Assembly: GCA_028280505.1 (NCBI GenBank)
Contig: JANQLO010000048.1
Location: forward strand, 1-64,000
From: Chromatiales bacterium
GTDB lineage: Bacteria; Pseudomonadota; Gammaproteobacteria; Chromatiales; Chromatiaceae
DNA: 64,000 nucleotides
Reading direction: 5' to 3'
The translations under genes were made by a program, and so were the position numbers. The stretch's first letter is position 1. The number at the start of each line of letters is the position of its first letter. Under the pieces are notes generated by a model, which saw nothing but the letters and a program-made list of their open reading frames with translations, was not told the origin of the DNA and searched no databases. Of this stretch, positions 469-11,232 are shown piece after piece.

Positions 469-667
469 GCGCTGGAGGAAAAATTCTGCTTTTGGTGGAG
501 GGGGAAGGATTACTCCACGCCTGCGGCGTTCCGCCCTCCGGGCCGCTGCGCTATGCGCAGCGTTCTTCGGCGCTCACGCGCCTCCGTCAAACCTCTTGTC
601 GGTTCTCATCCTCCCCCGCCCAAGGCGCTGGAGGAAAAATTCTGCTTTTGGTGGAGGGGGGAGGATT
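469..667 (-). repeat. rtT-like duplication of the tRNA-Tyr 3' end and trailer
   Basis: Positions 625-667 and 469-511 are direct copies, 42 of 43 identical, offset by 156 nt. The copied unit is the last 19 nt of tRNA-Tyr (649-667, T-loop AAT through CCA) plus 24 nt of trailer. The single mismatch is at 505/661, inside the T-stem copy. Similarity stops abruptly at the T-loop. In the E. coli tyrT operon a 178-bp repeat also begins with the last 19 bp of the tRNA. The second copy lacks the rest of the cloverleaf, so it is not a second tRNA. Confidence 0.85.
512..624 (-). ncRNA. Candidate structured RNA spacer between tRNA-Tyr 3'-end copies
   Basis: This GC-rich spacer folds into successive hairpins. 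Stems, given in plus coordinates, are 517-521/525-529, 533-536/540-543, 545-551/555-561, 569-573/578-582 and 590-593/601-604. The same series occurs in the spacer next to tRNA-Gln (11018-11134), with changed but still paired bases. It would be transcribed as part of the tRNA-tuf precursor. Whether it accumulates as a separate RNA cannot be told from sequence. Confidence 0.5.
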
Positions 668-733
668 CGAACCTCCGAAGGCTGAGCCGTCAGATTTACA
701 GTCTGATCCCTTTGACCGCTCGGGAACCCCTCC
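649..733 (-). tRNA. tRNA-Tyr (GTA)
   Basis: The reverse strand begins GGAGGGGTTCCCGAGCGG and ends with CCTCCACCA. The anticodon loop is CTGTAAA with anticodon GTA. The 85-nt length and long variable arm fit a class II tRNA-Tyr, and CCA is encoded. It is the first gene of the tRNA-tuf array seen here. The upstream 200 nt must hold its promoter, but no convincing minus-strand -10 box was found. Confidence 0.97.
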
Positions 734-929
734 AAAAAAGAGGCGGTATTCTGTGGGAACGGGATTTTGCTGTCAACTATGGGCCAAGACTTTGATGTCG
801 AAGTGCCATCAAAACCTTACGGAGGCTGTGCTAGCATCGCCGGCTTTCGGGTTGGCGGTCAATAATCTGCAGACATCGCCGCTAATCCCCGCAACGGACT
901 CCCCAAAAAAAACCAGGTAGCCTGAAAAG

Positions 930-10976: not shown

Positions 10977-11175
10977 CCGCTTCGCGGCCATCCAAATATG
11001 GCTGGGGCGGTAGGATTACTCGGGCTTCGCCCTCGCCCTTCGGGCCGCCGCGCCGAGCGCGACGTTCTTGGCGCTTCGCGCCTGCGTCGAACCTTTCGGT
11101 TCGCCTCCTACGCCAATCACCTTTCGGTGCATGACCGCTTCGCGGCCATCCAAATATGGCTGGGGCGGTAGGATT
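10977..11175 (-). repeat. rtT-like duplication of the tRNA-Gln 3' end and trailer
   Basis: Positions 11135-11175 and 10977-11017 are identical over 41 nt, offset by 158 nt. The unit is the last 19 nt of tRNA-Gln (11157-11175, AATCCTACCGCCCCAGCCA on the tRNA strand) plus 22 nt of trailer. The breakpoint is the same T-loop position as in the tRNA-Tyr repeat. The distal copy has no D-arm or anticodon arm, so it is not a tRNA gene. Confidence 0.87.
11018..11134 (-). ncRNA. Candidate structured RNA spacer between tRNA-Gln 3'-end copies
   Basis: Hairpins in plus coordinates are 11022-11025/11029-11032, 11035-11038/11042-11045, 11047-11053/11057-11063, 11070-11074/11078-11082 and 11089-11093/11098-11102. 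Order and spacing match the tRNA-Tyr spacer. In the third stem a T-A pair at the Tyr locus is C-G here, and another pair becomes G-U only if the minus strand is the RNA. The first stem differs in sequence but remains paired. This supports a conserved RNA fold in the tRNA sense. Confidence 0.5.
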
Positions 11176-11232
11176 CGAACCTACGAGTGCCGGAGTCAAA
11201 GTCCGGTGCCTTAACCGCTTGGCCACGCCCCA
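11157..11232 (-). tRNA. tRNA-Gln (TTG)
   Basis: The reverse strand reads TGGGGCGTGGCCAAGCGG at the 5' end and CGCCCCAGCCA at the 3' end. The anticodon stem CCGGA/TCCGG encloses CTTTGAC with anticodon TTG. The U1-A72 acceptor pair and encoded CCA are typical of gammaproteobacterial tRNA-Gln. It lies between ispE and prs. Confidence 0.97.

What the first reader, a model, noticed from the sequence alone, without database searches (positions are those of the whole stretch)
505..624. Related structured spacers with compensatory changes at two tRNA loci
Spacers 512-624 and 11018-11134 align and form the same series of hairpins. In the stem 545-561 / 11047-11063 one pair changes T-A to C-G, and a second becomes G-U only when read in the tRNA sense. 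The first stem (517-529 versus 11022-11032) has different bases but still pairs. The roughly 115-nt unit flanked by 41-43-nt direct copies could be an insertion that duplicated its tRNA target, or a structured RNA kept by selection.
Basis: partly seen in the sequence, partly recalled or inferred. Interest (0 to 1): 0.75.

Follow-up and report, generated by a model that had tools for sequence, protein, structure and literature searches.

The report
Hairpin module inserted beside tRNA genes
The two spacers are copies of a small four-hairpin RNA already catalogued as RtT RNA, and comparison across many bacteria suggests that it is a tiny insertion element that lands in the loops of extra, broken copies of tRNA genes and in other hairpin-forming DNA.

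Summary
Both spacers match Rfam RtT RNA (RF00391): the Tyr copy at 52.7 bits (cut-off 45), the Gln copy at 38. Read in the tRNA sense, each is: tRNA, trailer, an arm complementary to the 3' part of that tRNA, then a four-hairpin core of 70-76 nt sitting exactly in a T-loop (TT[CT]GA^core^ATCC), then a copy of that tRNA's 3' end with CCA and trailer. E. coli tyrT/rttR has the same plan. The core covaries strongly.

Beyond the known family, a core-only model finds the module in 50 of 115 genomes of the window's class. Besides T-loops it sits in D-loops and anticodon loops of tRNA copies, before a copy of a 5S rRNA 3' end, and in dispersed palindromes: in one genome 18 interrupted against 136 uninterrupted copies. 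Ends are constant and the usual target is GA^A; where an intact target is at hand, nothing is duplicated. I conclude that RtT is a small non-autonomous insertion module, kept here in structured form beside tRNA genes. The enzyme that moves it is not identified. The window copies are new RtT copies; the insertion behaviour is the surprising part.

The parts
649..733 (-). tRNA-Tyr(GTA), host gene
   Evidence: ARAGORN; Rfam
625..660 (-). first copy of the direct repeat (tRNA-Tyr 3' end plus trailer)
   Evidence: exact match to 469-504
587..622 (-). left arm: complementary to the tRNA-Tyr 3' end (closing stem), a small T-arm-like hairpin, then GGTTTGA, the left target flank
   Evidence: sequence; RNA fold
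511..586 (-). Tyr core module, 76 nt, four hairpins, ends in GGAGTA
493..510 (-). tail: copy of tRNA-Tyr 3' end from position 59 (ATCCTTCCCCCTCCACCA; one base differs from the gene)
469..504 (-). second copy of the direct repeat (tail end plus trailer)
493..630 (-). Rfam RF00391 RtT match, 52.7 bits, over the cut-off of 45
11157..11232 (-). tRNA-Gln(TTG), host gene
   Evidence: ARAGORN
11135..11175 (-). first copy of the direct repeat (tRNA-Gln 3' end plus trailer)
   Evidence: exact match to 10977-11017
11087..11114 (-). left arm: complementary to the tRNA-Gln 3' end, GAACC-GAAA-GGTTC hairpin, GGTTCGA left target flank
   Evidence: RNA fold
11017..11086 (-). Gln core module, 70 nt, four hairpins, ends in CGAGTA
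10999..11016 (-). tail: copy of tRNA-Gln 3' end from position 59 (ATCCTACCGCCCCAGCCA)
10977..11017 (-). second copy of the direct repeat (tail plus trailer)
10999..11126 (-). Rfam RF00391 RtT match, 38 bits, below the cut-off of 45

Best explanation
The RtT core is a small non-autonomous insertion module (about 60-80 nt, four consecutive hairpins: H1, H2, a GCCC-GNA-GGGY hairpin, H3, then GARTA or GARTCA). It inserts mostly at GA^A, often in loops of hairpin-forming sequence, and where the intact target is known it leaves no target duplication. At the two window loci it sits in the T-loop, after A58, of a partial tandem copy of tRNA-Tyr and of tRNA-Gln. The copy keeps the host's acceptor/T 3' strand with CCA and the trailer. 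The sequence left of the core pairs with that tail, so a transcript would fold as a closed, tRNA-end-like stem carrying a T-arm-like hairpin plus the four core hairpins. SHOWN: positions, constant ends, host-matched tail and arm, covariation, interrupted and uninterrupted target repeats in one genome. INFERRED: mobility in trans by an unidentified enzyme acting on single-stranded or extruded hairpin DNA; tolerance because the functional tRNA stays intact beside it; array growth by recombination between the direct repeats; transcription with the tRNA and release by tRNA-processing enzymes.
For: Core inside tRNA copies beside an intact gene: L072 tRNA-Ser(tga) T-loop TTCAA^ATCC, where the left flank follows the host's TTCAA; L078 and L268 each carry two cores in one copy, D-loop and T-loop; anticodon loop in L008 (TTCGA^AATC) and L261 (CTTGA^AAACC). 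In L268 the pieces outside the cores are identical to the neighbouring gene. L230: a core behind a 5S rRNA gene, followed by a copy of its 3' end and terminator. In G393, 18 palindromic repeats with the core at GGA^ATCC against 136 uninterrupted. With the core-only model, 62 non-redundant sites: -2 G 44, -1 A 49, +1 A 56. Near-identical dispersed copies in G141, G000 and G393. Cores of one genome at tRNAs for different amino acids resemble each other more than with shuffled genome labels: 0.729 against 0.682, 0 of 2000. Host-matched tails: 122 of 172 at 90% identity or more; own host better than other hosts in 151 of 172; left arm in 143 of 172.
Against: No transposase or other mover identified; no presence/absence polymorphism within a species was tested. 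Orientation is nearly always tRNA-sense although TTCGAA is palindromic (190 of 192 within 300 nt of a tRNA agree with the nearest tRNA, and the other 2 have a host on their own strand), which a plain DNA-site insertion does not predict. Dispersed copies may have spread inside other repeats (MITE-like elements, palindromes) rather than by their own movement. The full GA^A holds for only 18 of 41 non-T-loop sites as the model places the ends. 43 of 62 sites have the same single base on both sides and 2 have two, so a one-base duplication is excluded only where the intact target is known.
Confidence: 0.68

Rival explanations
1. RtT is a cis-acting or trans-acting structured RNA kept by selection: released from tRNA transcripts, it acts on tRNA maturation, termination or the stringent response, and its spread among tRNA loci is by duplication and gene conversion.
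For: Strong covariation; nearly always tRNA sense; host-matched closing stem; tandem G-A mismatches, and G-U exceeding A-C mismatches 34 to 18, p 0.036; RtT homologues reported among expressed regulatory RNAs of Actinobacillus, and E. coli RtT linked to amino acid limitation (passages of PMC4986893).
Against: Cores also sit in D-loops, anticodon loops, before a 5S 3'-end copy, in MITE-like repeats and in 18 palindromes of one genome; presence varies within the genus: the tRNA-Tyr spacer of G001, G007 and G008 shows no core by eye, and the core HMM found none in those loci.
Confidence: 0.2
2. The module is inserted at the RNA level: an RNA ligates or reverse-splices into GA^A of tRNA and 5S loops, is copied to DNA and recombines next to the parent gene, which would explain sense orientation, tandem partial copies and lack of target duplication.
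For: Sense bias, loops of structured RNAs as targets, exact head-to-tail units (L259).
Against: No link to a reverse transcriptase or ligase was tested; insertions in palindromes and MITE-like repeats; one antisense candidate at a tRNA-Phe copy (L236).
Confidence: 0.12
3. A Y1 transposase of the REP-associated or IS200/IS605 type mobilises it (a PATE or REP type element).
For: Hairpins at the ends, no duplication, preferred left flank. Y1_Tnp in 36 of 42 core-positive and 8 of 20 core-negative genomes, p 0.0006; with two 'negatives' that RF00391 does call RtT (G045, G046) moved over, 37 of 44 against 7 of 18, p 0.0013.
Against: 6 of 42 positive genomes lack a match; genome size and kinship confound. 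In the two capped lists the closest pairs seen by eye are 0.75 kb (G089, a Y1 fragment at a contig start) and 2.9 kb (G108); no core was seen bounding a Y1 gene. No GTAG foot at the hairpin.
Confidence: 0.3
4. It is the residue of an integrase-type element that integrated at a tRNA 3' end and left att-like direct repeats.
For: Direct repeats of 36 and 41 nt contain the tRNA 3' end.
Against: The same core occurs without such repeats, in other loops and in palindromes.
Confidence: 0.03

Closest known systems
RtT / rttR RNA of E. coli tyrT (Rfam RF00391)
   Same: Same core, GAGTA end, host-matched tail with CCA, left arm and tandem units; MG1655 shows by eye one unit between tyrT and tyrV and three behind tyrV. 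The window Tyr copy passes the Rfam cut-off.
   Different: Described as an RNA by-product of a tRNA operon; in the passages I read it is not described as an insertion in tRNA loops. The Gln copy scores below the cut-off.
REP / BIME palindromic repeats
   Same: Small dispersed hairpin repeats; a passage of PMC2965389 links rtT-like sequences to BIMEs.
   Different: Four different hairpins in fixed order, tRNA loops as frequent targets; no REP-type GTAG foot seen (the GTAG criterion is recalled).
Yeast mitochondrial GC clusters
   Same: Tiny palindromic, TE-like modules that spread and merge (passages of PMC4478555).
   Different: Those are flanked by AG or ACT direct repeats; here no duplication where the intact target is known, and tRNA loops are a frequent site.
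PATEs and other non-autonomous IS200/IS605 derivatives (recalled)
   Same: Hairpin-bearing, no target duplication, preferred flank on one side.
   Different: No cognate transposase or matching ends found here.

Membership tests
RtT RNA (RF00391) | score at or above the gathering cut-off of 45 bits | tested here: met
   Tyr copy 52.7 bits
RtT RNA (RF00391), Gln copy | score at or above the gathering cut-off of 45 bits | tested here: not met
   38 bits, full length 1-130, E 5.8e-6 for the 401 bases searched. A relative by anatomy, not a formal member at the cut-off
RtT RNA | downstream of a tRNA, ends in a copy of its 3' end with CCA | tested here: met
   both copies
RtT RNA | released as an RNA from the tRNA transcript | not testable with these tools
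   needs RNA data
MITE | terminal inverted repeats and target-site duplication of several bases | tested here: not met
   core ends are C... and ...GARTA; of 62 flank pairs 17 share no base, 43 one, 2 two, none more
PATE / IS200-IS605 derivative | ends shared with a Y1-transposase element in the same genome | tested here: inconclusive
   one Y1 gene in G000, no listed core on its contig C63; presence correlation confounded
REP (RAYT-associated) | GTAG-type tetranucleotide at the hairpin foot (recalled) | tested here: not met
   H1 starts within 4 nt of the left junction in most of the 107 parsed cores; no such motif in the flank table
site-specific tRNA island | att direct repeat at every insertion | tested here: not met

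The most novel reading that the evidence does not exclude
RtT is not primarily an RNA regulator but the visible, tRNA-linked part of an unrecognised class of mobile element: a 60-80 nt four-hairpin module that inserts scarlessly at GA^A in loops of structured RNA genes and in palindromes, perhaps by way of RNA or single-stranded hairpin DNA, and that drives tandem copying of tRNA gene halves.
Probability: 0.35. Interest if true: 0.88.

Novelty: new variant of a known kind. Interest (0 to 1): 0.7.

Why it matters
If right, a family filed as a small RNA is a widespread insertion element that favours tRNA gene copies (50 of 115 genomes of the window's class with the core model). That would explain why RtT-like repeats turn up behind many different tRNA genes, in tandem, and inside other repeats. 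It gives a directly testable model for how tRNA genes gain partial copies and for how a hairpin-only module can spread. It also warns that covariation and RNA-family membership do not by themselves show an RNA function.

Tried and rejected
Phage-type att residue: rejected, because the core occurs without direct repeats and in other loops. REP foot motif: not seen. Y1 transposase as cognate: one Y1 gene in G000, no listed core on its contig; left open. Reading of L280 (G089), where a Y1 fragment lies 0.75 kb from a core: the ORF list shows only a short Y1-like piece at the contig start. First core model R1 took the RNAalifold structure with only 7 pairs and was not used for searches. The host range (Ser, Gln, Tyr most often) is not explained by the T-loop sequence alone: TTCGAAT occurs in other tRNAs too (recalled, not counted). 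The closing-stem match is weak in Ser copies: left arm better with own host in 57 of 73, against 47 of 50 for Gln and 18 of 18 for Tyr.

Literature: the searches listed no paper that I could see describing RtT as an insertion in tRNA loops; the library holds open-licence papers only, and the 1991 RtT paper is not held. Of papers I saw passages only: PMC7657543, PMC4986893, PMC2965389, PMC4710047 and PMC4478555.

Rows dropped and biases: of 180 downstream elements 172 entered (8 without a parsable junction, T-loop or tail window); of 232 places 202 entered the core-end parse and 107 the four-hairpin parse. One search was given 42 of the 50 positive genomes and only the 20 listed of its 65 negative ones; two of those 20 (G045, G046) do have an RF00391 match. 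Nearly all tRNA-linked loci were fetched through RF00391, whose model contains the T-loop flanks, so their T-loop share is biased. The flank table uses the core-only model but only loci held from its best-scoring matches or chosen by me; L238-L240 were left out for want of a recorded strand. The insertion loci named were read by eye.

Full report
WHAT IS THERE. In the tRNA (minus) sense the Tyr spacer reads: tRNA-Tyr 733-649, trailer, left arm and target flank 622-587, core 586-511, tail 510-493, trailer again. The Gln spacer reads: tRNA-Gln 11232-11157, trailer, 11114-11087, core 11086-11017, tail 11016-10999, trailer again. Exact direct repeats are 36 nt (469-504 and 625-660) and 41 nt (10977-11017 and 11135-11175). 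RNA folds give one topology for both: a closing stem of left arm with tail, a small T-arm-like hairpin, then four core hairpins; z -4.17 (0 of 200 shuffles as good) and z -2.57 (2 of 200).

WHAT IT IS CALLED. Rfam names the Tyr copy RtT RNA, RF00391, 52.7 bits over a cut-off of 45. The Gln copy is full length at 38 bits, below the cut-off. E. coli MG1655 carries rttR behind tyrV, and its sequence, read by eye, has the same anatomy: one unit between tyrT and tyrV and three after tyrV. The window pair are therefore a member and a near-member of a known kind. Passages that I read describe RtT as liberated from a tRNA operon transcript and linked to amino acid limitation (PMC4986893), with a covarying tandem G-A motif (PMC7657543), and rtT-like sequences as BIME-associated candidate attenuators (PMC2965389).

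DISTRIBUTION. RF00391 at E 0.1 or better: 22 of 56 relatives, 12 over the cut-off. At E 0.001: 65 of 370 genomes of the class and 47 of 398 drawn from the phylum, of which 23 lie in the class and 24 outside it, those 24 all in one family. Only 8 candidates per genome were scored in the two large searches, so those are lower bounds. In the loci fetched by then, a core-only HMM finds 232 distinct places in 91 genomes or records: 180 downstream of the nearest tRNA on its strand, 24 upstream on its strand, 2 with the nearest tRNA on the other strand, and 26 with no tRNA within 700 nt. The two opposite cases have a host on their own strand: tRNA-Glu for L149, tRNA-Ser(cga) for L072. Within 300 nt of a tRNA, 190 of 192 agree with the nearest tRNA's strand. 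Nearest upstream hosts in the 172 measured: Ser 73, Gln 50, Tyr 18, Lys 12, Arg 12, tmRNA 2, Asp 2, and Val, Glu, Pro 1 each.

THE TAIL AND THE ARM BELONG TO THE HOST. For 172 downstream elements the tail is mostly identical or nearly so to the host's own 3' end (mean 0.879, median 1.000; 122 of 172 at 0.9 or more) against 0.617 for tails of other amino acids; own host is better in 151 of 172. The left arm matches the reverse complement of the host's 3' part better than that of other hosts in 143 of 172 (Tyr 18 of 18, Gln 47 of 50, Ser 57 of 73). So the outer parts are tRNA-derived and the core is the shared piece.

THE CORE IS AN INSERTION. In L072 a tRNA-Ser(tga) copy with its leader is interrupted between TTCAA and ATCC; the host T-loop here is TTCAA, and the left flank follows it, so this flank is target, not element. 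L078 holds two cores in one tRNA-Ser(gct) copy, in the D-loop and the T-loop. L268 holds two cores in one tRNA-Ser(tga) copy at GTCGA^AAGCAC and TTCGA^ATCCC; the piece before the first core and the piece between the cores are identical to the intact gene just downstream, with no base gained or lost at the D-loop junction. Anticodon-loop insertions: L008 in the window's own genome (TTCGA^AATC) and L261 (CTTGA^AAACC). Further D-loop cases by eye: L006, L051, L098, L154, L222, L262. In L230 a core follows a 5S rRNA gene (Rfam) and is itself followed by a copy of the 5S 3' end and terminator. L257 looks like one core nested in another behind a tRNA-Lys gene, and L259 shows exact head-to-tail units.

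DISPERSED COPIES. A covariance model of the core alone (R2, from 28 cores; covariation 0.558 against 0.161 shuffled, 97.6% of cells paired, 0 of 500) matched all 28 genomes that I chose because they were positive and 50 of 115 genomes drawn from the class at E 1e-4. The latter is a lower bound: G045 and G046 have an RF00391 match but none with R2 at that threshold. The window's genome has 21 matches at E 0.05, six of them at contig ends as multicopy repeats would be. In G000, G141 and G245 dispersed copies lie inside MITE-like repeats with related terminal inverted repeats, CTAGCCCG...TTGCAC.AAG, and L283 of G225 shows a similar right end. In G393 the core interrupts a dispersed palindrome at GGA^ATCC: 18 interrupted copies (up to 3 mismatches) against 136 uninterrupted (76 forward, 60 reverse, up to 1 mismatch), the read-backwards control giving 0 in both. 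Five of the eight fetched interrupted loci were parsed by a strict pattern and show the same junctions; the other three were not parsed. These 18 may descend from few insertions copied with the palindrome.

TARGET. At 62 non-redundant sites placed by the core-only model, position -2 is G in 44, -1 is A in 49 and +1 is A in 56. Outside T-loops the full GA^A holds in 18 of 41 as the model draws the ends; some misses are end-placement slips, others look like true variants. Comparing left end with right start, 17 of 62 share no base, 43 one, 2 two and none more. Where the intact target is at hand (tRNA loops, the G393 palindrome) both bases are already in the target, so nothing is duplicated. One base (A) is shared by both junctions, so the cut cannot be placed more finely.

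SPREAD WITHIN GENOMES. Cores at tRNAs for different amino acids in one genome are more alike (0.729, 38 pairs) than after shuffling genome labels within amino acid (0.682, sd 0.009, 0 of 2000). This fits intragenomic spread, though shared base composition and gene conversion could contribute. In the same genus the tRNA-Tyr to tRNA-Gly spacer shows no core in G001, G007 and G008 by eye, and the core HMM found none in those loci; G001 keeps what looks like a relic of the left arm.

HOW IT MAY WORK. Shown: constant ends, preferred target, no duplication where testable, host-matched flanks, structure. Inferred: a trans-acting enzyme on single-stranded or cruciform hairpin DNA; survival because an intact tRNA stays beside the interrupted copy; array growth by recombination of the direct repeats; release of the RNA by tRNA-processing enzymes acting on the acceptor-like closing stem. 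The nearly strict tRNA-sense orientation is the strongest result against a plain DNA-site model, because TTCGAA reads the same on both strands; it favours either selection for the RNA or an RNA-level step. One antisense candidate exists (L236, behind tRNA-Phe). Mismatch counts lean weakly to RNA in the sense strand (G-U 34 against A-C 18, p 0.036), while G-U pairs are very rare overall (34 against 3483 Watson-Crick pairs), though the hairpin finder penalises them.

MOVER. Y1 transposase genes occur in 36 of 42 core-positive and 8 of 20 core-negative genomes (p 0.0006); with G045 and G046 counted as positive it is 37 of 44 against 7 of 18 (p 0.0013). Six positives have none, and the negatives tested are mostly small genomes. 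In the two capped lists, by eye, the closest Y1-core pairs are 0.75 kb in G089 (a Y1 fragment) and 2.9 kb in G108; no core was seen bounding a Y1 gene. This is a lead, not an answer.

VERDICT. Observation confirmed. As an object, new copies of RtT. As biology, the evidence supports a small insertion module that favours loops of tRNA gene copies, with an RNA role neither shown nor excluded.

Noticed in passing
window 606-747(-): Sub-threshold Rfam match to sX4 sRNA (35.9 bits, cut-off 70) overlapping tRNA-Tyr and the start of the spacer.
   Followed up: no
G000:C33:67081-67152, about 3 kb past the window end (L250): A dispersed core copy inside a MITE-like repeat with inverted ends CTAGCCC...TTGCACGAAGG; related repeats with cores in G141, G245 and G225.
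   Followed up: partly
L262, L078, L051, L154: In several D-loop insertions into tRNA-Ser copies the second base right of the core is C where the intact gene has G (for example AGGCGC becomes ACGCGC).
   Followed up: no
G495 and G425: Two genomes outside the class have 35 and 40 core matches at E 0.05, the highest counts among the 28 genomes.
   Followed up: partly
L032, L050 and L048: RtT units behind a tmRNA gene (L032, L050); L048 ends in a similar tmRNA-like 3' end but no tmRNA was found in that locus.
   Followed up: partly
L163 (G001) behind tRNA-Tyr: A site without core keeps a relic GGAAGGGGCTGAGAACGAAAGG that resembles the left arm, suggesting loss.
   Followed up: no
hairpins of 191 cores: G-U pairs are nearly absent from the stems (34 against 3483 Watson-Crick pairs), unexpected for an RNA, while G-A mismatches are the commonest.
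   Followed up: partly
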